DNA from: Diacronema lutheri
Lineage: Eukaryota > Haptophyta > Pavlovophyceae > Pavlovales > Pavlovaceae
NCBI GenBank assembly: GCA_019448385.1
Contig: JAGTXO010000008.1
Coordinates: 682,001 to 746,000 of the forward strand
Length of the DNA stretch: 64,000 nt
Reading direction: 5' to 3'
Part shown: positions 23,655 to 40,133 of the stretch, piece after piece
How the letters are laid out: the number at the start of each line of letters is the position of its first letter
Numbering within the stretch: the first letter of the stretch is position 1
Program-made: the position numbers and the translations under genes
The notes under the pieces: model-generated
What the model was told of the DNA's origin: nothing
What the model saw: only the letters and a program-made list of their open reading frames with translations
The model's database searches: none

Positions 23655-24259
23655 GCTCTGCACACCCTGTTCTCACAGAGCTTAGGGTCTTGTACGGCTG
23701 TGCATGGTTTGCCCGTGGTGGCCACCACGTTCATCATGTGCGTGCGCACAGTTGGCATGCCCACGCCTGCTCATTGGCAAGGCGAGAAAGTCGCCGCCGG
23801 CGCGCCGATGGGCGCCGCGGCGCTGTCGAACACGCCGCCCATCGGCGCGCGGCGCCGCGCGCTCGGCTGTGCGTTCCGGCGGCCTTGTGCATGATGCACA
23901 TCACGGCCGACGCGCGCCACAGATCGCTGCACCGAGCGGATGTGGCACCGATCGCCACGCCTCGCAGCGCTGCACATCGCAAGACCGCTCCGCGCACAGG
24001 ACGACATCGTCGTCCATCGCGCGGCGAAGCCCCACAAAGTGACATCGCGTCCCTTTCGACCATCGGAGAGGACGCCGTGCGGCGGATGGGCGAAGGCGCC
24101 GACCTAGTTTGCGGTCATTGTCAAGGACAATCATGTGAACACGCTGTGCGGCGCTGAGGCAACGCGCCAGCTGCGCGAGCTCGGCTGCCCTGCGCCCGCG
24201 TGGTGGAGTGTTGCTTGGTCGATGTGGTGCGACATCCTTGGCCGTTGCCGCGAATAAAT
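23655..24259. other. Intergenic region with 14-bp inverted repeat
   Basis: 605 bp between the kinase stop and the prolyl hydroxylase ATG. CGCGCCGATGGGCG (23801-23814) and CGCCCATCGGCGCG (23836-23849) form a perfect 14-bp inverted repeat with a 21-nt spacer. AATAAAT directly precedes the next ATG. No ORF with coding character was seen. Confidence 0.6.
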
Positions 24260-25618
24260 ATGAAGGCCAAGGCGCCGAGCGGCGGCGCCTCGCGGGCGCG
24301 GCACGTGGGCGCACTGTGCGCGGCGGCGTGCGCGCTGCTCGCGGCGAGGCACTACGGCCTCGGCTTGAGCGGCGTGCAAACCCTGCCGCTCGAGGCGTCC
24401 GGGGAGAGCGGCGGCGCGCGCGACGTGGAACCCGGCGCGATCGCGGCGCACGTGCGCCAGGTGCGCGTGGACGCGGCGTCGGCGCTGCCGTGCGATGACA
24501 CGTCAACCGATTGCGTTGCGTGGGCGCGCAGCGGCGAGTGCTCTGCCAACCCGGCGTTCATGCTCGAGGGGTGCAAAGCCTCGTGCGGCCTATGCGGCGC
24601 CGAGCGCGACGCGCGCACGCCCAGCGGCTCGTCCGCCCCACCGGCCGACGAGTGCAAGGACCTGCACGACATGTGCGCCACCTGGGCATCGATCGGCGAG
24701 TGCAACAGCAATCCGTCCTTCATGACCGCGCAGTGCCGTGTCGCGTGCCGCCTCTGCCAGTCCGCAGACTGCCGCGACTCACGCGACGACTGCGCCGAGC
24801 TCGCGCGCGATGGCGGGTGCTACTCACGCGCGTCGATGCGGCGCGAGTGCGCGTGGACGTGCGTGAGCTGCGCGGCGCGCGACGTGCCCAAGTGCGCGCG
24901 CGACCGCTCCATCCCGCCCGCCGCCGTGCGCGGCTCGGTCGAAACGCTCTTCTCGCGGCTCGCGGCCATGCCCTCGACCGACGGCAGCGCGGCCAGCGCG
25001 GTGCGCGTGCACTCGGCGTCGCCGTGGGTCGTAACAATCGACAACTTCCTCTCACCCGCCGAGGCTGACGCGCTGCTCGCCGCGGGCGGCACTGACTGGA
25101 CCCGCTCGCTCGCGGGCGACGGCGTGCAGCAAGTGCGCACGTCGTCGACGTCGTGGTGCCGCGCGCGGTGCCTCGAGGACGAGACCGTGCAGGCGGTGCA
25201 ACGGCGGGTTGAGGCGCTCACCGGCGTGCCCGTCGAGAACGCCGAGTACATGCAGGTGCTCAGGTACGAGCCCGGCCAGTTCTACAAGGTGCACCACGAC
25301 CAGAACAGCCCGCGCGCATCGGCGTGGGGTCCAAGGCTGTACACTTTTTTTATGTATCTCTCCGACGTGGAGGCGGGCGGCGGCACACACTTCCCGCGGC
25401 TCAACATCACGGTCGAGCCGGCGAAAGGGCGCGCTCTGCTCTGGACGTCCGTGCTCGACGAGGATCCGTACGAGCGCGACGACCGCACTGACCACGAGGC
25501 GCTCGACGTCATCGCGGGCGTCAAGTACGCGGCCAATTATTGGCTGCACATGTTCCCGTTCCGCTCGATCTCGGACCTCGGCTGCGACAACGCGCCGTAC
25601 ATGAACAACTGGGTGTGA
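24260..25618 (+). CDS. Prolyl 4-hydroxylase with three ShKT domains
   Basis: 452 residues. An N-terminal signal anchor (VGALCAAACALLAARHYGLG) is followed by three six-Cys ShKT modules at about residues 75-190 (DDTSTDCVAWARSGEC ... CKASCGLC; CKDLHDMCATW...CRLC; CRDSRDDCAELARDGGC...CVSC). The 2-oxoglutarate/Fe(II) dioxygenase domain follows. Iron ligands are visible in FYKVHHDQN (HxD) and the His of RTDHEALDV; the Lys of GVKYAANYWLH binds 2-oxoglutarate. It hydroxylates peptidyl proline in the secretory pathway, for cell-wall or scale glycoproteins in algae. Single exon. A 124-bp dispersed repeat starts at its stop codon. Confidence 0.9.
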   Translation: MKAKAPSGGASRARHVGALCAAACALLAARHYGLGLSGVQTLPLEASGESGGARDVEPGAIAAHVRQVRVDAASALPCDDTSTDCVAWARSGECSANPAFMLEGCKASCGLCGAERDARTPSGSSAPPADECKDLHDMCATWASIGECNSNPSFMTAQCRVACRLCQSADCRDSRDDCAELARDGGCYSRASMRRECAWTCVSCAARDVPKCARDRSIPPAAVRGSVETLFSRLAAMPSTDGSAASAVRVHSASPWVVTIDNFLSPAEADALLAAGGTDWTRSLAGDGVQQVRTSSTSWCRARCLEDETVQAVQRRVEALTGVPVENAEYMQVLRYEPGQFYKVHHDQNSPRASAWGPRLYTFFMYLSDVEAGGGTHFPRLNITVEPAKGRALLWTSVLDEDPYERDDRTDHEALDVIAGVKYAANYWLHMFPFRSISDLGCDNAPYMNNWV

Positions 25619-25740
25619 CGCTGCCATGCCTGTGACGCACCGGGGCGCAAAGAGGGTCGAGCACACGCGTGCGAGCGGGTCAAAGTTCGCGTTCCAGCAC
25701 GTTGCCACGTCAGCCGGCGGCAACCGTGCCGACTCCTCAT
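25617..25740 (+). repeat. 124-bp dispersed repeat, left copy
   Basis: Starts GACGCTGCCATGCCTGTGAC within the prolyl hydroxylase stop codon and ends CGACTCCTCAT. The same 124 bp occurs inverted at 32751-32874 with only about 4 differences by eye. The outer ends show no evident target-site duplication. Confidence 0.88.
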
Positions 25741-25845
25741 CGATCTTGATCCCGTCAACTCGCAGACTGAACACAGTTCTCGCTGAGTTCTGAGTTCTGA
25801 AGTGCGGACGCGTGGCTATGCCGCCACGGAGCGGAGAAGGACGAA

Positions 25846-27339
25846 ATGGCGATCGGCGCACTCATCTGCCTCGCGTCGGGCTTCGTCCGGCCGGCGCTGC
25901 CAACTGCGCGCGGCGCGCCGGCGGTGAGGCCGGTGCACCCTGTCGCTGCGGCGCACGCAATTTCGATGACGGCCACGGCGCAGAAAGTAGGCATTGTCGG
26001 CGCGACCGGCGCGGTCGGCAAGGAGGTCATCGGCGTGCTCGAGAAGCGCGGCTACCCGATGTCGTCGGTCCGACTCTTCGGCTCGGAGCGTTCGGCGGGC
26101 ACGGTGGTGAGCACGTCGCTTGGCGACGTGTCCATTGAGGCTTTCAGCGTCGACGCCGCGCGCCAGACCGACGTCCTCTTCCTGTGCGTGGACGGCTCGT
26201 TTGCGCTCGAGCACGGCGAGAAGCTCGCCGCGCCCGGCGGGCCGCTCGTGATCGACAACTCGTCGGCGTTCCGGCGGGACCCTAAGGTGCCGCTGCTCGT
26301 GCCCGAGATCAACGCGGCGAGCGGCAAGGGCCACCGCCTCATCGCCAACCCCAACTGCACGACCGCGATCCTGCTGATGGCGCTCGCGCCGCTCGTCGCC
26401 CTCTTCGGCGTCAAGCGCGTGATCGTCTCGACGTACCAGGCGGCGAGCGGGGCGGGCGCCGAGGGGATGGCCGAGCTGCAGGAAGGCCTTGCCGCCGGTG
26501 TCGCGGGCAAGCCCTTCACCAACAAGGTGCACCCTCGTGCGCCCTCGCATTGCGCGGCCGCTCGTAGCGCGCGCTGTCGCGCGAGGGCTGCGCGCATCAT
26601 CGCTGCGCAACGCGAGGCGCGCCTGCCGCGCCGCGACGGCCTGTCCGCCACGGTTTCCTTGCCCTTTGCGTCAGCGCCACGCCCCCTTACATGCGCGACC
26701 AGCGTCGCCGCCTTGCATACACCTGATATAGGTGTTTGCACACCCGCTCCCGTACAACGTGATTCCGCACATCGACGTCTTCCAGCCCAACGGCTACACG
26801 AAGGAGGAGATGAAGGTCGCGTGGGAGACGCGCAAGATCCTCGACATGCCGGACCTGCCCGTCTCATGCACGGCCGTGCGCATCCCGACGCTCCGCGCGC
26901 ACTCCGAGGTCTGCGCGACCCTGCGCGCACCCGCGCGCACCCGCGCGCACCCGCGCGCACCCGCGCGCCCCCGCGCGCCCACGAGAGAGGCGCGTGCCCG
27001 TGCCCTCACTTGCCGCGACCTCGCGCGCGCGCGCGCACGTACGCATGCGCCCGGCTCGCGGCGCAGTCGGTGACTATTGAGACTGTGCGGCCGGTCGACC
27101 TGGCCATGGTGCGCGAGATCTTGAGCGCCGCGCCGGGCGTCCGCCTTGTCGACGACCCCGCCGCGAAGAAGTACCCGATGCCGATCACCGCAACCGGCTC
27201 GTACGACGTCGAGGTCGGCCGCTTGCGCAAGAACGAGGTCTTCGGCGAGTGCGGCCTCGACATGTTCGTGTGCGGCGACCAGCTGCTGCGCGGCGCGGCG
27301 CTCAACGCGGTGCTCATCGCCGAGGCCCTCGTCATATAA
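25846..27339 (+). CDS. asd: Aspartate-semialdehyde dehydrogenase, plastid
   Basis: Three exons: 25846-26526, 26732-26908, 27067-27339 (376 aa), all phase 0. It reduces aspartyl phosphate to the semialdehyde on the route to Lys, Thr, Met and Ile. The presequence [16 protein letters not shown] ends in an ASAF-like SGF. Then [18 protein letters not shown] (NADP binding), [21 protein letters not shown] (active-site Cys), [23 protein letters not shown] spanning the first junction, and [14 protein letters not shown] (substrate Arg, His). Introns begin GTGCAC and GTCTGC; the second contains CCCGCGCGCA repeats. The family is certain. Confidence 0.96.
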
Positions 27340-27461
27340 AGGGCGCCTGTGCGCCCTATACATGATCGCAACCCTGGCCCCTGCGGTCGGCGCGCGCACG
27401 CGCGCTCTCCTTAGGGGCAGGGGCGCGCTCTCTGGGGCCGCCGCATCCAGAAAGCAACGCT
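27340..27461. other. Spacer downstream of aspartate-semialdehyde dehydrogenase
   Basis: 122 bp after the stop. Starts with GGGCGCCTGTGCGCCC (27339 onward), a short perfect hairpin that may end or stabilise the mRNA. It is followed by structured sequence leading into the hairpin array. Confidence 0.4.
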
Positions 27462-27987
27462 CCCCCGACCAGCTCGGTCGGGGGCCCACAGCTGGGCTCG
27501 CCCAAACTGGGCTCGCCCAAACTGCGGCAGACGATGTGACCTCGTTTGCGTGACGCCGGCGGCCTGTGCCATCGGCGCAAACTCCGAGCAGAGGGGACCG
27601 CACACCTAGTAGCGGCCTGTGCGCGAACGCAGCCGCGCGCGCCTGTGCGCGCGCGATCCGCGGACGCGGTAACCCAAGTGCCCGACCGCCCCGTGCACAC
27701 GCACGGGGCGGATCGGCCCGACGGCCTGCTGCTGGAGGCAAGCAACTTGCCTCCGACAGCAGCGCCGCCGTACGGAGCGTGCAGGTCTGTGCGCCTTGCG
27801 GCGTGGTGGTGGTGCTTGCGCGAGCGCGCGTCGGCAACCGCGGTGCGTGGCGAGCGGAGGAGCTCGCCACGCACCGCGGCCGCGCGCGTCAGCTCGGGCG
27901 CGAGCGAGCGGCGAGGGGGCTGCGCCGCCGGACACGAGCGCGCGGTGCGCGCGCGCGCGCGCTCGTGTCCGGCGGCAGCCCCGTCGC
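27462..27987 (-). ncRNA. Hairpin array 3' of Fanzor: candidate omega/fRNA locus
   Basis: Read from the Fanzor stop codon on the minus strand, five strong hairpins follow. (1) 27987-27911: 20 bp perfect core (27924-27943 with 27957-27976), extended by 6 and 4 bp, starting at the first base after the stop. (2) 27879-27838: 18 bp perfect, 6-nt loop. (3) 27763-27728: 15 bp with a 3-nt bulge. (4) 27716-27682: 11 bp perfect plus 4 bp beyond a 1-nt bulge. (5) 27484-27462: 9 bp, 5-nt loop. In known TnpB/Fanzor loci the guide RNA scaffold is encoded at the 3' end of, and just past, the nuclease gene. Position and structure fit that; transcription is not shown, and transposon-end or mRNA 3'-end structures are alternatives. 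Confidence 0.45.
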
Positions 27988-30650
27988 TCACGGCCCGCGC
28001 AGCTCGAGCGCCTTCTTGTAGATGTTGCGCGCGGCGTTGAAGTCACGGTCAAAGATGGTTCGGCACCACGCGCAGCGCACGAGCGTCTTGACGACGCGGT
28101 TGGTCATCGGGCTCGACGGGTCGTGCTTGCGCACGCGGACCTGCCGGCGCGTCTTGGTGAAGAAGTCGCAGCAGCTCTTGCCGTCGCACTTGCTGCAGTC
28201 CTGCGACGTGTTGCTCTCGTCGATGAAGCCGATGGTGTAGCCGCGCGCGCGGAAGGCGTCGACGATGCCCATCGTCTGCGACGGCATCTTGCCGCGCTCG
28301 TGCCACTTGCCAAACTTGGGGTAGTGCAGCTGCAGACTCCAGTCGCCGACCGCGATCACGACCTCGCCCGGCCCGCCGTACGTCGCCGCGAACGCGTCGA
28401 CCATCCTGCTGTGCGCGCGCTGGTGGTTGGAGTAGGCGTGCATGCGGTGCGTGCGGAACCACTCGTGCCCGTACGCGCCTCGCAGCAGCTCGCGCGCCTC
28501 GTGGCGCTCGTCCTCGTTGAGCAGCGGCGCGCCGTGGCCGTCGCGGCCCGCGAGCGCCTCCTCGAGCTGCGCGATCGAGCGGCGCTGCGGGTCGCCGCGC
28601 ACGACCGTCATCTTCTTGCGCCGCAGCATCCGCTCCGTCGCGCGGCGCTCGCCGGCGAGCCGCCGGTGCCGCGCCGCCGACCAGCTGAGCGTGCGCGGAC
28701 GCGTCGCGCCGAACAGCGCGCACGCCCACGCGAAGAAGAGCTTGTTCTTGCCCGGGTCGAACACGACGATCTGCTCGGGCGTGTAGCGGCGCAGCGTCTC
28801 GCGGTAGAGGTAGTCGGTGCGCCCGAGCTCGTCGCGCCCGCCAAGGCGACTCGCGAGCGGCGCGTCGCACGTGCGCAGGACGGACGCGGCCTTGCCGTCC
28901 GTCTGGATCGACGAGACGTGGCCACCCGCGCGGTTGGCGCGCCGGAGCGCGCAGGACACGTCCATCTTGAACACCACGTTGAAGATGCGCGTGCGGTTGT
29001 TGCCTGCGGTGATCGGCCGCCCCGCGTCGTAGCCTCTGCCAAACGCCCGCACAAAGTCCTCGGTGCAGCGCAGCCACTGCTGGAGAAATTCGGCGTCGAT
29101 GCGGAGGAAGTGGCCGACGATGAGGCTCTTCTTGCCCGGAAGGCGCTTCGGGCCGATCGGCTTGTCGCCGTTGGCCTGCCGCGCGGCGTCGAGCACGCGG
29201 AGCATCGCCCTGTACCCGTCGCCCACGTTGTTGCTCTCGCCCGGCGGGCGATTGAGGTACCAACCCATGTTGTGGTCGCCATCGTAGTCGGCGTCAAAGA
29301 GCTCCCAAGCGGGCAGCACTTCGCGCAGCAGGTCGTCGTCGTCGCGCAGCGCCGCGGGCAGCGACGCGTCGTCGATCTGGCCGCGCCAGATGAGCCGCGT
29401 GCAGCGGCGGCGCGCGTGCCGCATCGTCTGTGCGGACAGCGCGCCGTTGCCGGCCGGCGGCGCGGCGAGCCCAGCCGCAGCAACCTGCTCGGCGCGCGTG
29501 GCCCTCGCGAGGTGCACCTTGACGAGCGCCTCGAGCGCGCCGTACAGGCCCGACGTGCGCACGTGGTTCACGTAGTTGGTCGTGAGCTGCGCGGCGAGGA
29601 AGTTAAGCGGCGGTTTCATGTACGCGACCTCGATCGGCCCGCCCGCCGCGAGCACGGCGTGGTGCGCGCCGGCAAAGTCCGCGAGGTCAGCGCCGAGCTG
29701 CCCGTGCTGCGGAGGCGCGCCTGTCGCGTTTGCCCTCCGCGTCACGGCCCAGATGACCGCCCTCCAGTAGGACTCCGTCCACACGGCGGGCAGCTCCTCG
29801 CCGGAGCGCAGCGCGCGCTCGGCAAAGTCGACGCCGACCTCGATCGCGAGCGCGGCGATGCGGTCAAATTTGACCGCAAAGTCCTGCAGGCGCTGTAGGT
29901 AGGCGGGGCGCACGATGGTCTTCAGCTGCAGCTTGATGGACTGGGCGCGGTCCGCGTCGTCGAGCGCGTTCGTCCGCTGCGTGGCGCGCACGTGCCGCCG
30001 CCGCTTCCGCGGTGGCCCGCCATCGCCACGCCCGCCACCGCCGCCGCCGGCGCCGCCACCGCCGCCACCGGCGCCGCGTCCGCCGCGTCCGCCACGCCCG
30101 CCACGCCCGCCGCGCCCGCCGCCGCGCCCGCCACGCCCGCCACGCCCGCCGCGCCCGCCGCCGCGCCCGCCGCCGCGCCCGCCGCCGCGCCCGCCACCGC
30201 CGTCGCCGCTGTCGGAGTCAGAGTCCGAGCCCGCGTAGAGGGATTCGCCCGAGGAGGAGGCGTCAGAGGAGGCGTCAGCGCAGCTGGTCGCACCGGTGGC
30301 TGCACGGCTCGCGCGCTCATCGCCGCCCGTGGCAGCGCAGCCGTGCGCGCAGCGCGCACCGCACGCGCGGCGCGACGGCATGCGCGGCGCACGCGCGCCC
30401 GCCGTTGCGCGTGCGTCGGCAGCAGCGGCGGGCGGCAGCGGCGAGCGGTCGGCGCGAGCTGCGCCGGCGCGCGCCTCCGCCTCGCCGCCATCGGCGCACG
30501 CTCGTGGCGCGCCCGGCTCGCACTCGCCACACACTTCGGCCTCGGCGTGCGGCGCGGGCTCGGCGGCAGGCGGCGCGGCGGCCGGCAGCGGCGCGGCGGG
30601 CGCGGGCAGCGCGGCGGCGGCGCTGCGCGCAGCGTCGGAAGCGCGCGCGC
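27988..30650 (-). CDS. Fanzor (eukaryotic TnpB-like RNA-guided endonuclease)
   Basis: About 885 residues to the TGA at 27988; the conserved core is the last 670. RuvC-I is IVVFDPGKNKLFFAW (Asp codon 28756-28758). VVIAVGDWSLQLHYPKF leads to YTIGFIDESNTSQDCSKC, whose IDES Glu (28216-28218) matches the rearranged catalytic Glu of Fanzors. A zinc ribbon has CSKC and CAWC. RuvC-III is IFDRDFNAARNI (Asp codons near 28042-28050). Upstream: acidic SDSDSDSGD, a long GGR/GRGG tract, and PPRKRRRHVR, a likely nuclear localisation signal. All catalytic residues appear intact. The 5' boundary is unsettled because the plausible upstream coding continues in another frame. A hairpin array abuts the stop codon. 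Confidence 0.88.
30018..30200 (-). repeat. GGR/GRGG low-complexity tract in Fanzor
   Basis: Imperfect tandem CGGGCGGGCGTGG/CGGCGGG units encode about 60 residues of Gly with periodic Arg, then Gly-Ala-Gly, between an acidic patch and the PPRKRRR basic motif. RGG-like tracts often bind RNA; that role here is inference. Such DNA is prone to slippage. Confidence 0.75.
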
Positions 30651-31793
30651 AGCTGCCGCCGCCGCGAGCTGCACGGCAGTGCGCATGCGTGGCTGGCCCA
30701 TCTCGTCGCAGTTCTTGGCGTACAACTTGTCCTGCTCGGCGAGGTGGGCCATCACCATGTCGGTCCTGTGCGCGCCGACGTAATGCTCCAGCCGCTCGAT
30801 CCCGCCTTGGTAGAGGTAGCGCCGAAAGTCGCATCGCGGCTCGGAGAGGAGGAACGGCGGCCAAACGCGCGGCGGTTGCTCGCGCGGCGGCACGCGCGAG
30901 CGCGAATCGCAGCGCGACCCGCGTCCGCCGGCGGCGTGTCGAGGCTCGCACGCGCCGTACTGCGCGCACGGCTCGGGCGCGGGCGCGGACGCCTCGTCGC
31001 TCGCTCGCGCGCAAGCGTCCGCGCCGCGCGCAGGCTCGTGGCGGCGGCGGCCGCCGCCGAGCATCGCGAGGGCGGCGGTGTGCAGCCGCGTCGTCGCCCA
31101 CACCTGCGCCAACGCGCTGGCAGCCGCGATCGCGCCGTCGCGTAAAACGCCTCCAGCGAGCGCCCACTCGCACGCGGCGCGCGCGCTCAGCTTGGCAAGC
31201 ACGGCGAGCTCGGCGGCGATGGGCGGGAGCGCGACGGTCGCGCAGCGGCCGGCCATGCACGCGGCTGAGCACGCCAGCCCTGCGCGGCACAGCGCGAGCG
31301 CAGCGGCGCGCGCGCCGCGCGCCGCTCGCGCGCGCAGCGGCACGCGCGCGCTCGTGCAGAGCCGGCGGCGGCAGAGCCGCCTCGGCCACCGCCGCGCTGC
31401 GAGCGCCTCCTGCCGGCGCTCCCGCCGGCTGCGTCGGCGCTCGTGCACGATCGACGCGAACGGCGACGGCGGCGGCCGCGACGCCTGCGCCGTGCGGCGC
31501 GCGCCGCCGTCGGGCGGCGCGTACGTGCGGCCGTCCTTGGCGTCGGCGAGCAGAGCGGAGGATGCGGAGCGCGCCACGATGCCGCCGACGTTGCGCAGGC
31601 TCGGAACGACGGTGCCGCCGGCGAACATGTCGGCGGGCCGCAGCGCGACGACTGAGACGGCGTCGGCGAGAGGCGAGGCCGAAGACGAAGACGCGGAGAG
31701 GGCGAGCGGCGCGGTGTCGAGCAGCCCTGTGCCGCGCGCCGCGCCAAAGCAGGCGGCGATGGCGAGCGTGATGGGCACGAGCCGCGCCGTCAT
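30600..31793 (-). CDS. Upstream reading frame, 5' part of Fanzor transcript or separate gene
   Basis: From ATG 31793 a frame with natural amino-acid usage begins with a signal-peptide-like segment (MTARLVPITLAIAACFGAA). It passes through Ala-rich helices (LPPIAAELAVLAKLSARAAC, GAIAAASALAQVWATTRLH) and ends with FLLSEPRCDFRRYLYQGGIE and MVMAHLAEQDKLYAKNCDEM near 30,680. Past about 30,650 this frame degenerates to Pro/Arg repeats while the Fanzor frame becomes coherent. A short intron, a frameshift, or two separate genes would explain this. I found no family for the segment. A secretory start on a nuclear nuclease would be odd, so a separate or captured gene is possible. Confidence 0.4.
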
Positions 31794-31870
31794 GGTCGAG
31801 CGCCGCCGAACTGGGTGGATGGCGGCGGCGGCGGGTCGAACACACAGCGCGCCGCAAGTCCGGACGGTTT

Positions 31871-32198
31871 GAGTGTGCGTCCGGCGAATGTACGAGGCCG
31901 GTTCGAGTGTGCGTCGAGTAGGAACAGTGGAGCGTGCCGCTGCCCCGCTTGCCGAAAGCGCGTCCGCGCGGTGATACTCACGATGCGGTCGACCGCGCAC
32001 GCGCGCCGAGCGCCCGGGCATGGTCTCTGTGCTGCCTACCGACTCGGGCGTGGACGCACACTCGTACGAGTATGCGGCCGCGCCCGAGTCGTACGTTAGC
32101 CGGACGGGGCAATGTCCGGGCCCAGACGCAGGCCGAACATTGCGTCTGGGCCCAGGAGTTTGGACGGGGCAATGTCCGGGCCCAGACGCAGGCCGAAC
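31871..32198. repeat. Palindrome and repeat cluster 5' of Fanzor
   Basis: GAGTGTGCGTC occurs at 31871-31881 and 31905-31915; its inverse GACGCACACTCG is at 32053-32064. ACTCGTACGAGT (32060-32071) is a perfect palindrome inside a 10-bp stem GACTCGGGCG/CGCCCGAGTC (32041-32050, 32081-32090). A 37-bp unit beginning GGACGGGGCAATGTCC is repeated exactly 60 bp apart (32102-32138, 32162-32198). Part of it, GGGCCCAGACGC, pairs with GCGTCTGGGCCC at 32142-32153. This is dense symmetry of a kind common in subterminal transposon DNA. Confidence 0.75.
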
Positions 32199-32204
32199 TC
32201 GTGG

Positions 32205-32573
32205 GCACCGGTGTATGTGCTTTGCGACGCGCCCATTGGTGTGCCTGCCGGTGAGGAGCGAGACGCCCAGCTTGATGAGCTTCATCTCACCCGTCCGAGG
32301 GTGGTGCATGGCCTGGATGGTCGCCGTGCTGAGCTGGCAATGCTTCGGGCTGAGGCCGCACGCGACGCTGTGCAAGCTCGGGACCTCGGCGGAACTACAC
32401 GGAACGTGGCCGGATCGGCCAGCGCCATCCCGACCCCACCACCGTCCTCCCTGCTCGGCGGTGTGTAGACGTTGAGGAGGCGGCACGCCCTCAAGCGTGC
32501 CACGGTGTCGCAGCGCGTACGCCCGCACTTCATGCCCCGCGTCGTCTTGGCCTCCGGCGCCGGCGGCCGCCAT
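32205..32573 (-). other. Degenerate coding fragment
   Basis: The minus strand reads SLHSVACGLSPKHCQLSTAT then IQAMHHPRTGEMKLIKLGVS and LLTGRHTNGRVAKHIHRC. This has balanced composition unlike shadow frames, but there is no proper start and no known motif. It is probably a remnant of a mobile-element or host gene. Confidence 0.3.
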
Positions 32574-32750
32574 CCTCGTGGCCTTTCCCGCCCAGAAACA
32601 TCAGCTCCTGAACGCAGGCGCAGATTGACGGCGAGATAGCAGACGAGGAACGCGCACCTCAACGCCGAGGGTCGCAAGCGGATCCACATGGTGCGCGCGC
32701 ACATCGGCAAGCTCATGCTCTCGTCAAATTACGGCAGGCAGCTGTACGGC

Positions 32751-32874
32751 ATGAGAAGTCGGCACGGTTGCCGCCGGCTGACGTGGCAACGTGCTGGAAC
32801 GCGAACTTTGACCCGCTCGCGCACGTGTGCTCGACCCTCTTTGCGCCCCGGTGCGTCACAGGCGTGGCAGCGTC
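32751..32874 (-). repeat. 124-bp dispersed repeat, right copy (inverted)
   Basis: Reverse complement of 25617-25740, about 97% identical by eye. Together the copies form inverted ends around 7,258 bp that include aspartate-semialdehyde dehydrogenase and the Fanzor locus. Confidence 0.88.
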
Positions 32875-33316
32875 GCTGGCACGCCACCCTCCCGCCACTC
32901 GCACGGCGAGTGGGTTGGGGTAGGTCCTCGCCAGGCGCGACGGACAAGAGCAGCTTTCGCGACGCCGTAGCCCGGCGTCGTCCGCTGAACCGCATCGCAG
33001 GGCTCGGCGTTGACGCCTTCGGCATCCACCCCTCCCACGCGAGGGCTTGCTATCGGCTGACTCGCCACGCGAAGGCTTGCTATCGCCGAGCGCGATGGCG
33101 AGCCCTCGCGCGCGCCCCGCCGGCGCGGCGGCCCACGATGTGCGCGGTCGCATCGCGTGTGCTGCAACTTCCGCGTCGAGTGCGTCGATGTGCGCCTCCA
33201 CGGCCGCCGATTCCGATTTGAGCGCCCGGCACCGACCACACGCCGGCCGCTTACGTCGTCATAGCAGGCGAGCGCCCGGCCTTTACGAATTCCGCGGGCC
33301 ACCCCCCCCCTTCCAG

Positions 33317-33317
33317 C

Positions 33318-33346
<29 letters not shown>
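33317..33346. repeat. C-homopolymer tract
   Basis: About 30 consecutive C on the plus strand, preceded by a shorter C run (33302-33310). It lies in a region without a supported gene. Confidence 0.9.
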
Positions 33347-33348
<2 letters not shown>

Positions 33349-33391
33349 TTCCTTGCGCGCGCGCTTCTCCGGTCGAGACGCACCGAGCTCC

Positions 33392-35323
33392 TCATCGCTC
33401 GGCCGCGCGCTGCCAAGCGCCGCGACACCACCGTCCTTGATCTGGTCGAGCGAGCGAGCTTGCGCGTGTTTGCCTTATTGAGCCCCCGCACATGCACAGC
33501 TCCGCCCTCTTTCGCAAGCTGCAGCAGCTCGTCGGTTCGTGCGCTGACGGTGGGAGCGCGGGCTGCTGCAGCTGGCACCGCAGCGGTAGGCAGCGCGGAG
33601 ACGCCGTGCATGGCTCCTGGAAAGAGCCGGGGCGCGGAAGCGTAGTAGGGCGGCTGCGCAAAGGCACATGCGTGTGCGCAGCCTGCACTCGTTTCGCGAC
33701 GGGAGGGGATTGGGGCGGCGCGGTCAGGGCAAGGCCCCCTCGCGCTCGAGGCGCAAAAGGCGCGCGTGAACTGGAGAAGCGACGGCGTTCGAGCGTACCT
33801 GCTGTGGGAGGACGCACAGAGCGCGCGAGGACAGGCGTCAGGTGCTGGCGCTGAAACTCGAGCGCGAGTAGCGACGCGGGCCCGGCCGCGGCCGGCGCGC
33901 CCTCCTCTGATTCTGCACACGGCAAACGCGGGAGCACAAGGCGAGGGGGCGCGCTGGTGAGCAGCGTGTGGCAGGAGTGCTCGCAGCGGCGTGTGCCCGC
34001 ACCTGCCCGCGCCGCTTCGCGTGATGACCTGCCCGTCACGGCCGCGTCGATGGACGCAGCAGCATGCTGCTCCGAGGCCGCGCGCGAGATGCTGCGGAAG
34101 GCACCGGCCGACGGGATGCTGATTTCCGGCGGCACGCCAGCGCCAGCGGGCTGTGAGTAACGCTGCAACAACGCGGAGGTGTAGTGCGCCTGCGCCGCCT
34201 TGAACACGGCGCCCTCGTTCGTCGATCCACAGGTGTAGATTGCGGTCGCCAGGCATTCCACCGCAAGCGCGCGCTCCGCTCGCGACGGATATCGCGGCTC
34301 GACAGCGTTGGTACTGGATTGGAAGAGGTGGCCCTGCGCGGCTTTTGCGTGCAGGCTCTGCTTGCCGGCGCGCGGCTGCTGCGAGGGCGGCGGCGACTGC
34401 TGCGAGAACGGGCTCTGCTGCTGCGAGGGCGGCTGCGGCGATTCGGATGAGAGCGGCGATGCCTGCAACGCCGCAAGCCTCATGTGCGCCCGCGCCTCCA
34501 CGAGCTCGTCAAACTCGCGCCGCGCCGCACGATTGTCCGGCTCGTACTTCCAGCCCATCGGCTCGTAGTGGGCGTGGTCCGCGCCAATGCCACCCGCAGG
34601 ATCGGCAAAAGACGCCACTTAAAGCTCATTGAAGGCGTACGCGAGGCCGTCCATTGCCATGACCGCAGGCGGCGGGAACGGGTCGTGCAAGCAGCTGCGC
34701 GAGACGCATGACCTCAAAGAGGCGAGCGACTCGAAGGTGTCGAGAACACGGCCAGACCCCTTTCCCTTGGAGGGGCGCACAGGCGACAAAGTGGGCTGCT
34801 CCTCCGTGAAGATCGTCCACTTGAGCTCGAGCGCGTCCAGCTGCGCCGCAGCCTCAGTCGGCATCCGGACCGCACCATTCCTTCTGTACTTGCAAAGGTT
34901 GGACAGCACAGACGCCTTCGCCGTTGCCACGTCGCTGCGCGCCTGCAGAGCCACGTGCTGCGCGACGGCATCGACGTCCGGCATCTGCGCTTCGAATAGC
35001 GCGGCGGCGAGGTCCCGCTTGAAGGCGGTCGCGTACTCTTGGTTGGCGACGTGGAGCGTGTCACCGGTGCGCTTGCAAGCGTGGAAGGGGTGGAGCAAAG
35101 GGCGCCGCGTGACGTTGTCGAAGAGGTCGACCAGGACGTGCTGGCTCAGCTGCGCCTGCGTGCACCTAAGGCAGCACAAGTCTGGGTACCACACCGTGAC
35201 GCCCGCCAACGTCCCGTGTAGTTCTGTCGGCCAGCCGGAAATCAGTATCGTCTGTCTGCCGGTCCGACACACTCTGCTCTGAACGAACGGACGGCACGCC
35301 CGACGAGATCTCGTCGCGTGCAC
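33392..35323 (-). pseudogene. Long frame interrupted by one in-frame TAA
   Basis: One minus-strand frame runs from about 35,300 to 33,392, broken only by TAA at 34621-34619. Before the stop: TELHGTLAGVTVWYPDLCCL, LVDLFDNVTRRPLLHPFHAC, GDTLHVANQEYATAFKRDLA, LDALELKWTIFTEEQPTLSP. After it, in the same frame: DHAHYEPMGWKYEPDNRAAR, REFDELVEARAHMRLAALQ and a Gln/Ser/Pro-rich tract. Both halves look like real coding. No start ATG is obvious and no family is recognised. It is either a decayed gene, perhaps from a mobile element, or a spliced gene whose intron hides the stop. Confidence 0.4.
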
Positions 35324-35334
35324 GCTCGCACAGC

Positions 35335-36167
35335 ATGTACCCCCAGAACGTCTCCGAGCTGCTGCCCGACGAGATCTTCGGCGACGAGCTGCTCGTCGAC
35401 CGGCACTACCGCGTGCGCATCCTTCAGCGCGTCGCCCGCCGCCGCGATGCGGCCGAGGCCCACTTTTGGCTCGACGGCGGGCCCGCCGACTCGGTCGTCG
35501 GCGCGTGCATGTGCGGCCGAATCTACGCGCTCAAGTGCATGGGCCGGCTCGTCCGCGGCGCCCGGATCCTCGCGCTGCTGCGCAAGAATGTCACGCTCGC
35601 CACGTGCCGCGCGCACCTCATGGGCCACATGCTCCAGCGCATCGTCGGCGACAGCGGCGTCGCGCGGCTGCTGCAGCTGGTTGCAGCTCGTTCGCGTGGA
35701 TCACGACACGCTCAACGCCGAGCACCAGGCCTTGGAAGCACAGCATGACACCGGCCAAATCATGCGACGGCATGTGCGCGCGCGCCGATGCGCTCTCCAA
35801 GGACCTCGCACGGGCGCACGAGCACGCTCACAAGCTCGATGGCTATCTGGTGTGGTGCAGCGAGCGCCTCGGTGAGAGTGACTCTTTCAACGGAGCGCTC
35901 GAGAACCTGAACACGCGGTGCAGCATGAGATGTGCTGGCTCCACGCCGAGATGTCGTCGCTCGTTGCGAGTTCGCCCGAGGTTTACGCGAACGACAGCGA
36001 GGCCACCGACTACAAGGACCACGGCGTGTGCGTCGAGTTCGATGTCTTCAACCGCGACGGGGTCGAGGGCGCGCCCGTGCCCGCGACCGCGCCCACGAAG
36101 GCAGAGCCGGGCATCGAGTCCGAGTGCATCGCGCCCGCACAGGCAGAGCCGGGCAGCGAGTCCGAAG

Positions 36168-36200
<33 letters not shown>

Positions 36201-36231
36201 GGCAGAGCCGCGCACCGAGCCCAAGTGAGCC
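35335..36231 (+). pseudogene. Coiled-coil protein gene in shifting frames
   Basis: ATG 35335 opens MYPQNVSELLPDEIFGDELL, followed by AEAHFWLDGGPADSVVGACM and LALLRKNVTLATCRAHLMGH. Around 35,685 the coherent frame changes to VDHDTLNAEHQALEAQHDTG, then near 35,770 to ADALSKDLARAHEHAHKLDG, and near 35,920 to VYANDSEATDYKDHGVCVEF with a Pro/Glu/Arg-rich tail. At least three frame changes within 600 bp imply decay or several tiny introns; I could not place convincing splice sites. It diverges from the interrupted frame on the minus strand. Family unknown. Confidence 0.4.
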
Positions 36232-36889
36232 AACGTGCCGCCGAGCTCGCCCAAGCTCTCGTCGGTCGACGGCCAGGCCACCGAGTACAAGACCTCCTAC
36301 GCGAACTCACGTGCTCGCCACCTGCAACGCCTCGAGTTCACGCACGCGCACTCGGCGCGGTCCGGTCAGTCAGAGGGCCTCAGCTTGCGCGATGCCAGTT
36401 GCGATCCCCCCCGGAATCCGCCATTCTATTCGACTGGGCGTCAATCACCCAAGCCCTTCCGGTCGCCCGCGTTCCGGGGTCGGACCCTCCGTCGGCCCGG
36501 CTCGGGCCCTCCTTCCGCCGCGCCCGCTCGACCCCGAATTCTACGCAAAATCGGCCGGTCAGGAGGGGGGTGTCGGTCCTAGGCTCGTCATAAGCCTCGC
36601 CCCGACTTCTCGAGCGCTCATTGGCTGGCTTTTAACCCTTGATTGTACGACCCGGGTCGTACTCTCAGCCCCCTACTGGCCGGACCAGCCCGGACCGCGC
36701 CGTATATAGCGCGCGCCACGGCCGCGTGCGTTCAGGTGCGCGGCATGCCACGGCACTAGATTCATGGCGACGGGAGGTCCGGGGATTTGAGTCCCGACTT
36801 GCCGTGCCAGCGGGTTCGCGCGTGCGCGCGAGGCAACGACAGGCCTCGTGACTGACTCTCGAGTTACGACCTGTCATTCAGCGTCCGCC
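36232..36889. other. Intergenic region with TATA-like GTATATAGC
   Basis: 658 bp before the APH-fold kinase. GTATATAGC near 36,700 is the most classical TATA-like word in the window, but it is about 190 bp from the next ATG (36890). Near 36,770 a T-arm-like stretch (GGGGATTTGAGTCCC) recalls a tRNA, but no complete cloverleaf could be built. Confidence 0.4.
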
Positions 36890-38314
36890 ATGCCCAAGGC
36901 CGCCATCTCGTCCGACCTCGCGTCCGCCGAGCTCGCAAGGCTGAGCGGCCTGTTCGGGTTCGGCGACGGCACGCCAGACAGCATCCGCGCCACGCAGCTT
37001 TTTGGCGGCTACAGCGGCGAGACGTTCAGGATCGACGAGCTGCACGGCGCGCGGCGCGTGGCGGCGCTCAAGGTGTGCCGCGGTTACCCGCAGGAGGAGG
37101 TGCGCGCGCAAGCGGCAGTGCAGGGCCTGATCGGCGCACGCGGCTTTACGGGCGCGTGCGCGGCACTGCCACTCGTCAGCCCGCCCGGCTCGGCGCCGGC
37201 CTACGTGGCGCAGAGCGCGCGCGGCGAGCCGGTGTGCATGCTCTCGTTTGTGGATGGCGTTCCAGCTGACGCGGCAATCGACGCGGGCGCGGACGCGGTG
37301 GGCGTACTTCGCGCGGTGGGCGAGCGGCTCGCATCGTTGCACGCCGTTCCTGTCGACGCGCGCGCTGACGGTCTCCGCACCTTCCGCGACGGCGGCGTGT
37401 GCCTGCTCGCGCGGCACGCGGCGGGCGCGATCGGTGAGGAGATGCGAAAGTCCGAGCACACACGCGGCCACCCCTTCGTCGCGCGGTACGGCGCGCTGCT
37501 CGCCGAGCTGCGCGCCGCGGTGGCGGTCGCCGACGTGCTCCCCAACGGCATCCTTCACGGCGACCCCTTCCTCGACAACGTGCTTGTCGTGACGGATCCG
37601 CCGCTGCTTCAGAGCGCGGCACCGGCGGACGGCGGCACGATGGCTGCGCAGCCGGGGCTCACGCCCGTCGGCTCGGTAAGCGGCGCGGTATCGGGGCTCG
37701 CGCATTCGCCGTCCATCGTGCACTGCGCATTCGTCGATTTTGAGGACGCGGCCGTTGGTCCGCTCGTGTTTGATGTCGCGTGCTGTGCGGCAAGCAGCTG
37801 CTTCGTGCGCGCTGCCGCCGGCGCGGACGGCGCCGGCGCGTCGGCCGAGGAGCTCGGCGGCGTGCTCGACGCCGGCCGGCTGGCCGCGCTGCTCATCGGC
37901 TACTGTACCGTGCGCCCGCTCACGGCCGCCGAGAAGCGCGCTTTTGGCGCGTGGCTGCGTGTCTCGATCGCGTGCAACGCGACTTGGCGTTTCGTCAATT
38001 TCCACATTGCGCACCGCGAGGCGATCGAAGCGCGCGAGTCGTACCGCGAGCTCGAGGCGCGGCTCGAGCAGCTGCGCGCGCCCGACTGCGTCGCGATGGT
38101 GCACGCCATCCTCAACGCGCTGCCGCAGGCGTCCGAGGATCGCGCGGCCGAGGCGCCGGGCGGCGGCGTGGCCGCGGCCGCCGGCGCGGCCGCCGAGCCG
38201 CCGGGCGCGCGCGCATGGCTCGATGCCAACCTGCCGACGGTGGCCGCGGCGACGGCCGCCGCCGGCTTTGTCGTCGGCGCGCTGCTGCGCGCGGGCGCGC
38301 GCCGCAAGCGCTGA
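36890..38314 (+). CDS. APH-fold small-molecule kinase (homoserine/hydroxylysine-kinase-like)
   Basis: 474 residues from ATG 36890. N-lobe: LFGGYSGETFRI (nucleotide loop) and RVAALKVCRGYP (Lys). Catalytic loop: NGILHGDPFLDNVLV, the HGDxxxxN signature. Metal site: CAFVDFEDAAVGPLVFDVAC, the DFE equivalent of DFG. These place it in the phosphotransferase (APH/ChoK) family, near homoserine kinase type II and hydroxylysine kinase. The substrate cannot be told. A hydrophobic C-terminus (TVAAATAAAGFVVGALL) followed by RRKR resembles a tail anchor, which is unusual for this family. Single exon. Confidence 0.72.
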   Translation: MPKAAISSDLASAELARLSGLFGFGDGTPDSIRATQLFGGYSGETFRIDELHGARRVAALKVCRGYPQEEVRAQAAVQGLIGARGFTGACAALPLVSPPGSAPAYVAQSARGEPVCMLSFVDGVPADAAIDAGADAVGVLRAVGERLASLHAVPVDARADGLRTFRDGGVCLLARHAAGAIGEEMRKSEHTRGHPFVARYGALLAELRAAVAVADVLPNGILHGDPFLDNVLVVTDPPLLQSAAPADGGTMAAQPGLTPVGSVSGAVSGLAHSPSIVHCAFVDFEDAAVGPLVFDVACCAASSCFVRAAAGADGAGASAEELGGVLDAGRLAALLIGYCTVRPLTAAEKRAFGAWLRVSIACNATWRFVNFHIAHREAIEARESYRELEARLEQLRAPDCVAMVHAILNALPQASEDRAAEAPGGGVAAAAGAAAEPPGARAWLDANLPTVAAATAAAGFVVGALLRAGARRKR

Positions 38315-38351
38315 ACCACTCTGTCTTGTCTCTGTCTGTCTGGCACTGGTC

Positions 38352-40133
38352 ATGCGGTCTTTTGACTTTTTTGACTTTCTGACAGGCGACGGAAGGTTGA
38401 TCATGATCATCATCAAAGGTTGGAAGTTTTTCCGAATCGGCGTCCGCGTTGACGTCGACGCTCGCCGCGGACCGCTCGTGACTAACGGTGATCGCCGCGT
38501 TTTGAGTCGGCGGTCGCTCATGCTGCGCTCGCCGGCCTCGTCGTCGTCCAACTCCGACTCGCCAACTTCGCGCCGCCCAGTGCGCAAGTCGGACTCGACG
38601 CTGCTCGCGCAGCGCGTGCGCAGCTTCCTCACGCGCTCGCCGAAGCGCGAGCGCAGCAGGTCGCCGCAAAACGCAACCGAGGCAATTGTGCCGCCGCGCG
38701 TCTTGCTCAGCAAGCGCAGCGAGCGCCTGGTACGCCCGCCGCCCTCGCCCGGCGCGCCGCCACGCGCTGCCGCGGCCGCGGCCGCGCCGGCCGCGCCCCG
38801 CGCTCGCTCGTCGCCATTCTGGGAGAGCCGCGCGACCGACGCTCCGTGGTTGCACGCCGATGCCTCCGAGACGCTCGCCGAGTCGATCCAGCGCGCGCAT
38901 GCGGTCGCAAGCTCGATGGCTACGCCGTCCGGCGTGGCCTGGCCGTCAGGCGACGCGTGGCTGCGCGCGGCGCGCACCGAGCGCGCCGAGCTCGACGCGG
39001 CGGCGGCCGCAGGCATTGCGCTCCGCGCGATGCGCGGCGTGCGCCGTACGCAGAGTTGGCGCGCGCGCGCGGCGGGCGCGCGCGCGCTCGAGGGAGCGAA
39101 CCCCGCGCCGGCCGAGCCCCAGCCACTCGACCTCGGGCTCGAGGCGTTTCACAGCATGTCGCTAACCGGTTTTGACTCGCTCGCGCGCATCGCGCACGAA
39201 GGCGGCGGCGCCGGCGCCGTCGCCGGTTCGAACGAGACGGAGGCACCGCCGCCGGGCTTCTTCGATAACGAGACCGAGCCGCGCGCCGAGTCGCCTCCGC
39301 CGCCCCCGACTGCTGCTGTGGGCGGCGCGCACGTCGCGCGCCTCTCGCAGGCCAACCTGCGCGTTCACACGCTCACGCACATGCCGGGCCTCGCGGGCGG
39401 GCAGCGCGAGTCGCTCGACGCGCCGGCGACGAGCACGGCGATCGCGCAGCAGCCGCCAGCCGGCGCGCCGCTGCTCGCGTTGAGTTCAGTCGGCGCGCTC
39501 ACCCTCGCTTCGGCGATGCTCGGGCGCAGCCATCGTGAGCAGCTCGGCGGCAGCGGCGACGCGACGCCGGCGCGCGAGACGGCCGAGCAGAAGAGCGCGC
39601 GCTACCGCGCTGACTACGAGAAGGCCGTGCGCAGCCGGTCGGTCGCACCATATCACGCGCCGCACCCGGCACACCCACGCGGCGTGACGCCTGGCGAGCT
39701 CAACGTGCACGCGCGCCGGCTTACGCCCGCGACGGAGCACGCGCCCGCACCAGCCGCTCAGTCGCCCGCGCCAGACGCGCCCACTGGCGCGAAGGAAGCG
39801 GCGCATGCGGCGGACGCGGCCACTGCGCCCGCCGCCGCGCCCGCCGCTGCACCCGCCGCCACCGCCGCGCGCCCCGCGCTCCCCGGCTCGGCGCACTACA
39901 TGCCGCGCCAGCCGGTGCCAGCGCCGTTCTACGCCAAGGCCCTCGTGCCGGGCTCATGGTCGGCGGGCATGGACTCGGAGCGACTCGCGCTCGCGCTCTG
40001 GCGCGCGCCGGGCGTCGCAACCGGCGCGCCGGCAGCCGCAGCCGCGGTCGCGGTGCCCAAGCGCCGCCTGCCCTTCTCGCGGCATGGCTCGGCATTGACC
40101 GACATGTCGATGCCTGTGCCCGTGTGGCCGTGA
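38352..40133 (+). CDS. Long disordered protein, function unknown
   Basis: 593 residues if ATG 38352 is used; ATG 38520 (MLRSPASSSSNSD) is a good alternative because 38352-38440 is T-rich (TTTTGACTTTTTTGACTTT) and resembles a promoter or UTR. A Ser/Arg-rich basic N-terminus (SRRPVRKSD, RSFLTRSPKRERSRS) is followed by Ala/Pro-rich disorder. Islands of order are FWESRATDAPWLHADASETL, ARLSQANLRVHTLTHMP and EQKSARYRADYEKAV. I do not recognise it. The same TTTTTGACTTTTT word occurs upstream of the gene at 46881. Confidence 0.55.
   Translation: MRSFDFFDFLTGDGRLIMIIIKGWKFFRIGVRVDVDARRGPLVTNGDRRVLSRRSLMLRSPASSSSNSDSPTSRRPVRKSDSTLLAQRVRSFLTRSPKRERSRSPQNATEAIVPPRVLLSKRSERLVRPPPSPGAPPRAAAAAAAPAAPRARSSPFWESRATDAPWLHADASETLAESIQRAHAVASSMATPSGVAWPSGDAWLRAARTERAELDAAAAAGIALRAMRGVRRTQSWRARAAGARALEGANPAPAEPQPLDLGLEAFHSMSLTGFDSLARIAHEGGGAGAVAGSNETEAPPPGFFDNETEPRAESPPPPPTAAVGGAHVARLSQANLRVHTLTHMPGLAGGQRESLDAPATSTAIAQQPPAGAPLLALSSVGALTLASAMLGRSHREQLGGSGDATPARETAEQKSARYRADYEKAVRSRSVAPYHAPHPAHPRGVTPGELNVHARRLTPATEHAPAPAAQSPAPDAPTGAKEAAHAADAATAPAAAPAAAPAATAARPALPGSAHYMPRQPVPAPFYAKALVPGSWSAGMDSERLALALWRAPGVATGAPAAAAAVAVPKRRLPFSRHGSALTDMSMPVPVWP

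What the first reader, a model, noticed from the sequence alone, without database searches (positions are those of the whole stretch)
27988..30650. Intact-looking Fanzor nuclease in a plastid-bearing alga
The minus-strand gene keeps the RuvC aspartates (VFDPGK, DRDFNAARN), the zinc-ribbon CxxC pairs and the relocated Glu in IDESNTS that distinguishes Fanzor from bacterial TnpB. A PPRKRRR nuclear signal is present. No frameshift or stop occurs in the 670-residue core. Fanzor RNA-guided DNA cleavage is established for other homologues; activity here is inferred.
Basis: partly seen in the sequence, partly recalled or inferred. Interest (0 to 1): 0.9.

Follow-up and report, generated by a model that had tools for sequence, protein, structure and literature searches.

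The report
Alga's mobile RNA-guided DNA cutter
A marine alga's nuclear genome carries a family of jumping DNA elements that encode a Fanzor-type nuclease, the eukaryotic cousin of CRISPR enzymes; the copy seen here keeps its cutting core but shows signs of damage just in front of it.

Summary
In detail: a minus-strand ORF (core 27991-29952) is a Fanzor1-type RNA-guided nuclease gene. A family profile matches only SpuFz1 significantly in the PDB (E 9.9e-6); Asp399 and Glu579 fall on SpuFz1's catalytic D383 and E541. DPG, TDG, relocated Glu, zinc ribbon and PPRKRRR are present.

The genome matches Diacronema lutheri NIVA-4/92 in size and contigs. It holds at least 13 full-length copies (11 stop-free, at least 98% identical) and a 44% paralogue: a mobile family. 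Copies end in GGCGCCC, followed by target-derived TATATATG (14 of 20 ends); a split tubulin-tyrosine-ligase gene shows that the octamer pre-dates one insertion. The region after the stop codon holds the three most structured windows of 55 scanned and ends in a stem half of which is target sequence, where a guide-RNA scaffold is expected.

'Intact-looking' needs correcting: this copy has a 2-nt insertion near 30649-30650 (absent from nine others), which puts the conserved N-terminal extension out of frame, and Y581N beside the catalytic Glu. Purifying selection among copies is not detectable (p 0.19). The carrier has a PIF1-like helicase but no recognised transposase. RNA, guide and cleavage are inferred, not shown.

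The parts
27341..36702 (-). Fanzor-bearing element, window copy (5' end at 36702, 3' end at 27341); internally shortened relative to the C71:936867-953808 copy (junction near 35215/35247)
   Evidence: Common 3' end in copies with unrelated flanks; 5' end shared with about 30 repeats; junction by comparison with L029-L031
27991..29952 (-). Fanzor1-type nuclease core, 654 aa
29995..30015 (-). PPRKRRR, NLS-like basic run, behind a Gly/Arg-rich repeat
   Evidence: present in 10 of 10 copies aligned
28756..28758 (-). codon of RuvC-I Asp399 (DPG)
   Evidence: maps to SpuFz1 D383
28216..28218 (-). codon of relocated Glu579
   Evidence: maps to SpuFz1 E541
28042..28044 (-). codon of RuvC-III Asp637 (DRDFNAARN)
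   Evidence: invariant in A1, inside the PF07282 match; beyond the SpuFz1 alignment
28210..28212 (-). private Tyr-to-Asn substitution (Y581N), two residues after Glu579
   Evidence: Tyr in the 10 other copies and in the 44% paralogue
30649..30650 (-). 2-nt insertion (place within the GC run arbitrary) that shifts the frame of the N-terminal extension
   Evidence: absent from 9 of 9 other copies aligned
27341..27987 (-). highly structured 3' region: candidate guide-RNA scaffold and/or transposon terminus
   Evidence: z -6.5 over 248 nt, -11.2 over 708 nt; the three 200-nt windows with z below -4 of 55 scanned lie in 27301-28100, while the fourth window there (27501-27700) is at chance, z -0.1
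27341..27366 (-). terminal hairpin with the CATGTAT segment that pairs with the target-derived octamer
27333..27340 (-). target-derived octamer (TTTATATG here; TATATATG in 14 of 20 ends read)
27313..27332 (-). host flank, predicted guide segment (antisense to the 3' end of an aspartate-semialdehyde-dehydrogenase-like gene, named by eye)
   Evidence: inference from position
36703..36708 (-). TATATA at the 5' junction (target duplication or element-owned: unresolved)

Best explanation
The gene is a Fanzor1-family RNA-guided DNA endonuclease carried near the 3' end of a recently mobile, multi-copy DNA element in the nuclear genome of Diacronema lutheri. Shown by sequence: the core, its first two catalytic residues aligned to SpuFz1, the copy family, the exact 3' end, the target octamer and the structured 3' region. 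Inferred: the 3' region is transcribed as a guide RNA whose last stem pairs the element's CAUGUAU with target-derived UAUAUAUG; the host sequence just beyond serves as guide; the nuclease cuts matching unoccupied sites next to a motif within TATATATG, favouring retention or copying of the element, as described for TnpB. The window copy keeps the core but has damage (2-nt insertion upstream, Y581N) that makes its own activity uncertain.
For: PF07282 E 3.6e-9. Profile of 11 copies plus paralogue: SpuFz1 8gkh E 9.9e-6, next best 0.091; offset 394 for both D399/D383 and E579/E541. TDG aligned to SpuFz1's. Own-genome family of at least 13 full-length copies, 11 stop-free. Common 3' end with unrelated flanks; target octamer and its variants; gap-free host TTL reading across a rejoined site. 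Structure concentrated in the 3' region; perfect 14-bp terminal stem in 14 of 15 tails. Published Fanzor1 reRNAs include TIR and TSD in the predicted scaffold and run about 15 nt beyond the TSD (section read); PpFz1's TAM is ATN (passage), compatible with ATG.
Against: No structure model could be made; the third Asp is not covered by the SpuFz1 alignment. Single-sequence phmmer gives SpuFz1 only E 0.07. N/S among copies is not below neutral (35/18, ratio 0.74, p 0.19). Covariation is thin (3 of 59 pairs, covariation term +1.45), and one 200-nt window inside the 3' region folds no better than shuffles, so the RNA reading is not separated from a DNA-level transposon terminus. A filled site keeps the whole octamer beside the guide, so self-avoidance is unexplained. 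No expression data.
Confidence: 0.78

Rival explanations
1. The Fanzor is a decaying passenger: the family spread recently through another element's machinery, the copies now drift, and the window copy is a relic without nuclease function.
For: N/S indistinguishable from neutral; frameshift and Y581N in the window copy; 8 of 48 matches hold stops and many are truncated; one stop-free copy has DPG changed to DPF (L017).
Against: 11 full-length copies are stop-free; the indels between the window's 2-nt insertion and the core are multiples of three in the 10 copies aligned; the 44% paralogue keeps DPG, IDES.TS and DRDF, so selection acted over the longer term.
Confidence: 0.3
2. The structured 3' region is purely a DNA transposition terminus (hairpins read by the transposase) and not a guide RNA.
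For: It ends exactly at the element boundary; the terminal hairpin pairs with the target, as expected if target choice used base pairing; weak RNA covariation.
Against: It begins at the nuclease stop codon and ends at the element end, the place where TnpB and Fanzor guide RNAs are encoded (family knowledge; passages); the paralogue, whose 3' DNA gives no blastn hit to it, also has a strongly structured window (z -5.9, L028:6201-6400 in gene orientation) that overlaps its stop codon at 6243-6245.
Confidence: 0.25
3. The carrier is a Helitron (Helitron2 group), as for the Fanzor1 elements of Chlamydomonas.
For: PIF1-like helicase in the C71 16.9-kb copy and in a related repeat; 3' hairpin; common 3' end with 5'-truncated or internally deleted copies; one 5'-truncated copy (C9) flanked by a 10-bp repeat, as described for CRe-1 to 3.
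Against: No Rep/HUH family in 27 ORFs scanned with Pfam; target CTATATATG rather than TTTT; the 14 other copies tested showed no clean junction-adjacent repeat, though for several the true 5' end was not in the sequence searched.
Confidence: 0.25

Closest known systems
Spizellomyces punctatus Fanzor1 (SpuFz1, PDB 8gkh)
   Same: Catalytic Asp and Glu at aligned positions, TDG, GDWS, E..TS..C..C; multi-copy element (SPu-1, 17 full-length copies, PMC3627910 passage; that SPu-1's protein is SpuFz1 is recalled)
   Different: Only about 266 profile positions align; SPu-1 is about 2.1 kb with 33-bp TIRs and putative TA duplications, here a 9-17 kb element targeting CTATATATG
Chlamydomonas reinhardtii CRe-1, 2, 3 (Fanzor1 in non-autonomous Helitron2)
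   Same: Algal; 3' hairpin; 5' truncation and internal deletions with conserved 3' ends (sections read)
   Different: Different target; no Rep found here; uninterrupted core here, 5 to 10 exons there
SfAV Fanzor1 (ascovirus element)
   Same: Terminal repeat and target-derived bases predicted to lie in the guide-RNA scaffold (section read)
   Different: There the RNA was sequenced; here it is predicted only
Bacterial TnpB (such as ISDra2)
   Same: RuvC nuclease with zinc ribbon beside a transposon end
   Different: Glu relocated next to the zinc ribbon and DPG instead of D-hydrophobic-G (criteria from section read)

Membership tests
Fanzor (1 and 2) | DPG motif in RuvC1 | tested here: met
   VFDPGK; DPG in 10 of 11 copies and in the paralogue (L017 has DPF); criterion from PMC10711439 section read
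Fanzor (1 and 2) | Alternative Glu six residues upstream of the zinc finger | tested here: met
   E579-S-N-T-S-Q-D-C586; aligned to SpuFz1 E541
Fanzor (1 and 2) | Zinc ribbon (TNB) domain | tested here: met
   PF07282 E 3.6e-9; CSKC and CAWC
Fanzor1 | TDG motif in the WED domain | tested here: met
   QTDGKAA aligned to SpuFz1 TTDGASV; TDG invariant in A1; criterion from a passage seen
Fanzor1 | REC2 kinked-helix pair; D-E-D triad meets in the fold | not testable with these tools
   structure prediction switched off
Fanzor1 | Carried by a non-IS607 eukaryotic transposon | tested here: inconclusive
   Mobile multi-copy element shown; no serine recombinase among 27 ORFs scanned, but the transposase is unknown
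Fanzor1 | Guide RNA encoded at the 3' end, reaching into the flank | tested here: inconclusive
   Structure z -6.5 and -11.2, weak covariation, no RNA data; no Rfam match in 24000-40000
Fanzor1 versus Fanzor2 | Position in a phylogenetic tree | not tested
Bacterial TnpB with canonical Glu | Catalytic Glu about 50 residues before the zinc finger | tested here: not met
   Profile alignment puts the Glu next to the zinc ribbon
Helitron | RepHel protein (Rep/HUH plus helicase) | tested here: not met
   PIF1 E 7e-22 and 1.8e-24, but no Rep family in 27 ORFs; the largest elements were not covered completely
Helitron2 | Insertion after T-rich TTTT target (as in the CRe elements) | tested here: not met
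   3' hairpin present, but the target is CTATATATG

The most novel reading that the evidence does not exclude
An unclassified large DNA element with a PIF1-like helicase recognises its target CTATATATG by base pairing with an internal CATGTAT beside its terminal hairpin; the same stem, once transcribed, is the last stem of a Fanzor1 guide RNA, so integration at a proper target completes the guide RNA and links nuclease function to correct insertion.
Probability: 0.15. Interest if true: 0.7.

Novelty: new member of a known kind. Interest (0 to 1): 0.42.

Why it matters
It adds a recently mobile, multi-copy Fanzor1 family in a small haptophyte genome, with 11 near-identical open copies and a rare octamer target, which gives a concrete, testable prediction of guide RNA end, guide and TAM. 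Twenty insertions whose 3' flank was read would allow a direct test of whether Fanzor acts on empty sites in a eukaryote. Earlier mention in print was not found, within limits: Fanzor with Helitron, 4 papers; Fanzor with haptophyte, 1 paper, a CRISPR review not opened; two of Fanzor, Diacronema, Pavlova, Emiliania, Chrysochromulina, only 8 of 324 papers listed, none of the 8 with the word Fanzor. The D. lutheri genome paper's main text has no 'Fanzor' or 'transpos'. Supplementary tables of Fanzor surveys could not be read, so the protein may already be listed there.

Tried and rejected
Relatives in viral contigs: two scans (single protein, then alignment A1), 1 and 10 pattern matches, none a relative by tblastn. 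So descent from a virus is neither supported nor excluded.

Rfam over 24000-40000: no match at gathering thresholds. PHROGs: weak zinc-ribbon match only (E 1e-5). NCBIfam: Cas12f2 and TnpB models far below cut-off.

Element ends: I first took the 5' limit at 35215 as the element end; comparison with three other copies showed that they continue further, so it is an internal junction. I first took TATATATG as part of the element's 3' end; variants in six of 20 ends and the TTL reading frame showed that it is target-derived.

Flanking duplications: of 15 copies tested, only C9 gave a junction-adjacent repeat (10 bp). The matches of 7-11 nt in others lie elsewhere, and two copies gave none; for several copies the sequence searched did not reach the true 5' end.

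Homology of the N-terminal extension: not found in the paralogue, Pfam or PDB.

Selection test among 11 copies: not significant. Helitron as a firm label: rejected for lack of Rep.

Full report
1. Observation. Pfam finds the Cas12f1-like TNB zinc ribbon at E 3.6e-9 over residues 635-710 of the 720-residue stretch; NCBIfam shows only sub-threshold Cas12f2 and TnpB matches.

2. Organism. The window's assembly has 43,492,796 bases in 103 contigs, with contigs of 3,042,068 and 852,258 bases among those fetched. The published Diacronema lutheri NIVA-4/92 assembly has 43,502,671 bp, 103 contigs, a longest contig of 3.042 Mb, a half-assembly contig length of 852.26 kb and 73.25% GC (PMC8379373, passages seen). 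The totals differ by 9,875 bases, which I cannot explain. I take the window to be that haptophyte's nuclear genome.

3. Family. Searching the genome with the core gives 48 matches: 13 full length, of which 11 are stop-free at 98-100% identity and two carry one TAG (96% and 92%), plus fragments, a nearly full-length relative at 43%, and weaker matches. Only 68 of 292 candidates were scored, so these are lower bounds. The relative (C86:1017819-1019780) has its own fragments at C22, C28, C6, C82 and C13, so at least two Fanzor subfamilies exist.

4. Active site. A profile from 11 copies and the relative matches SpuFz1 8gkh at E 9.9e-6 with the next chain at 0.091. Counting along that alignment, core Asp399 falls on chain position 777 and Glu579 on 935. 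SpuFz1's metal-binding residues include D383, E541 and D606 (PMC10432273 passage): both offsets are 394, so the first two catalytic residues coincide. Asp637 lies beyond the aligned part but is invariant. The Fanzor fingerprint, DPG plus a Glu six residues before the zinc finger (PMC10711439 section read), is met, and the TDG that the same paper gives for the Fanzor1 WED domain (passage) aligns with SpuFz1's. No fold could be predicted.

5. Damage in this copy. Against nine other copies, the window copy alone has two extra nucleotides at about 30649-30650, in a GC run; in the nine, the frame runs on into a conserved N-terminal extension. An assembly error there is not excluded. The next in-frame Met downstream lies 143 codons before the core, so a shorter protein with core and basic run remains possible (inference). 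The window copy also has private R334C, D383Y, R484H and Y581N (D383 here is core numbering, not SpuFz1's catalytic residue). Y581 is Tyr in the other ten copies and the relative, but the SpuFz1 residue aligned there is Lys, so its effect is unclear. Among the 11 copies there are 35 non-synonymous and 18 synonymous single changes against a neutral expectation of 38.3 to 14.7 (ratio 0.74, p 0.19): no purifying selection is detectable on this short time scale.

6. Element. Copies share sequence up to one sharp point downstream of the gene and then have unrelated flanks. I read 20 such ends: 14 continue with TATATATG; the others read TTTATATG (window), TATACATG, TACATATG, CATATACG, TGTATATA and ATGCAGGG. 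The octamer is expected 0.01 times per 64 kb. The C71:936867-953808 copy (C71b) interrupts a tubulin-tyrosine-ligase-like gene; joining its flanks over one TATATATG gives a protein that aligns to TTL 3tig at E 1e-21 with no gap at the join, so the octamer belongs to the target there. At the 5' end, 21 of 22 ends read TATATA and 18 of 22 have C before it; whether this is a 6-bp duplication or part of the element is open. The 22 are 19 of the 20 fetched (one 5'-truncated end dropped) plus the window, C71b and C15 ends. A pattern for the terminal hairpin finds 34 places with up to three mismatches, 30 with at most one, and none for the reversed control.

7. Carrier. The window copy is 9.4 kb with an internal junction near 35215/35247, shared by the C9 copy; C71b spans 16.9 kb. 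C71b and a related repeat encode a PIF1-like helicase (E 7e-22 and 1.8e-24), the latter also a ubiquitin hydrolase (E 4.3e-8). A 1.1-kb segment at the 5' side of the window copy is shared at 98-99% with 30 places besides the window and C9 copies (a lower bound: 40 of 507 candidates scored); by the contig lengths seen, or by low coordinates, 13 of the 30 lie about 28-31 kb from a contig end. Twenty-seven ORFs scanned with Pfam, one of them a host gene outside the element, gave no transposase, Rep or recombinase. The C9 copy is 5'-truncated and flanked by a 10-bp direct repeat. The pattern of intact 3' ends, 5' truncation and internal deletion resembles the Chlamydomonas Fanzor1 Helitron2 elements (PMC3627910 sections read), but the lack of Rep and the different target keep me from filing it there.

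8. The 3' region. From the stop codon to the element end the sequence folds far better than shuffles: -150.5 against -115.5 kcal/mol over 248 nt (z -6.5, 200 shuffles; this stretch includes 20 nt of flank) and -473.5 against -386.5 over 708 nt (z -11.2, 20 shuffles). In 55 windows of 200 nt over 26501-37500 three fall below z -4, all within 27301-28100; the fourth window of that stretch, 27501-27700, is at z -0.1, and 32101-32300 reaches -3.9 (20 shuffles each). The last stem pairs CATGTAT of the element with the target-derived octamer, a perfect 14-bp stem in 14 of 15 tails (the window tail has one mismatch; the four ends and L025 were not folded there). Covariation is thin: 3 of 59 pairs show double changes and the covariation term is unfavourable. 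The relative has a structured window (z -5.9, one of 20 scanned) overlapping its stop codon, in DNA without blastn similarity to the first family.

9. Mechanism. Published Fanzor1 reRNAs fold the terminal repeat and target duplication into the predicted scaffold and run about 15 nt beyond the duplication (PMC10711439 section); PpFz1 uses an ATN TAM (PMC11423790 passage). By analogy the window copy's guide would be its flank at 27332-27313, antisense to the 3' end of the neighbouring aspartate-semialdehyde-dehydrogenase-like gene (named by eye from the ORF). Retention by cutting empty sites is described for TnpB (recalled; related titles and abstract starts seen). A difficulty remains: the filled 3' junction keeps the octamer next to the guide, so the motif alone cannot protect the element.

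10. Verdict. A genuine Fanzor1-type gene, ordinary in kind, in a recently mobile family with unusually clean ends; the copy in the window is less intact than it looked.

Noticed in passing
25617-25740 and 32751-32874: A 124-nt segment of the element (97% identical, inverted) also lies just upstream of the aspartate-semialdehyde-dehydrogenase-like gene; 11 element copies (the window's included), C1:126725 and two partial places carry it. It may be a captured host segment or a small dispersed repeat.
   Followed up: partly
27333-27340: The element abuts the stop codon of the neighbouring + strand ORF (25846-27339), whose stop lies within the target octamer.
   Followed up: no
35247-36716 (and L033): Repeat with about 30 further copies; a related element carries a PIF1-like helicase and a ubiquitin hydrolase; 13 of 30 places lie about 28-31 kb from a contig end.
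   Followed up: partly
30680-31400 and L018: The N-terminal frame contains a 294-nt (98-codon) unit present in one to three copies in different insertions, and a Gly/Arg-rich tract of varying length.
   Followed up: partly
L028 (C86:1013800-1023799): Second Fanzor subfamily, 44% identical, with its own repeats in the N-terminal frame and a structured window over its stop codon.
   Followed up: partly
own genome, C36, C74, C82, C75, C7, C86: Further weak Fanzor-like matches at 28-37% identity that may be more divergent lineages.
   Followed up: no
32102-32198: Two exact 37-nt direct repeats next to a palindrome, local fold z -3.9.
   Followed up: no
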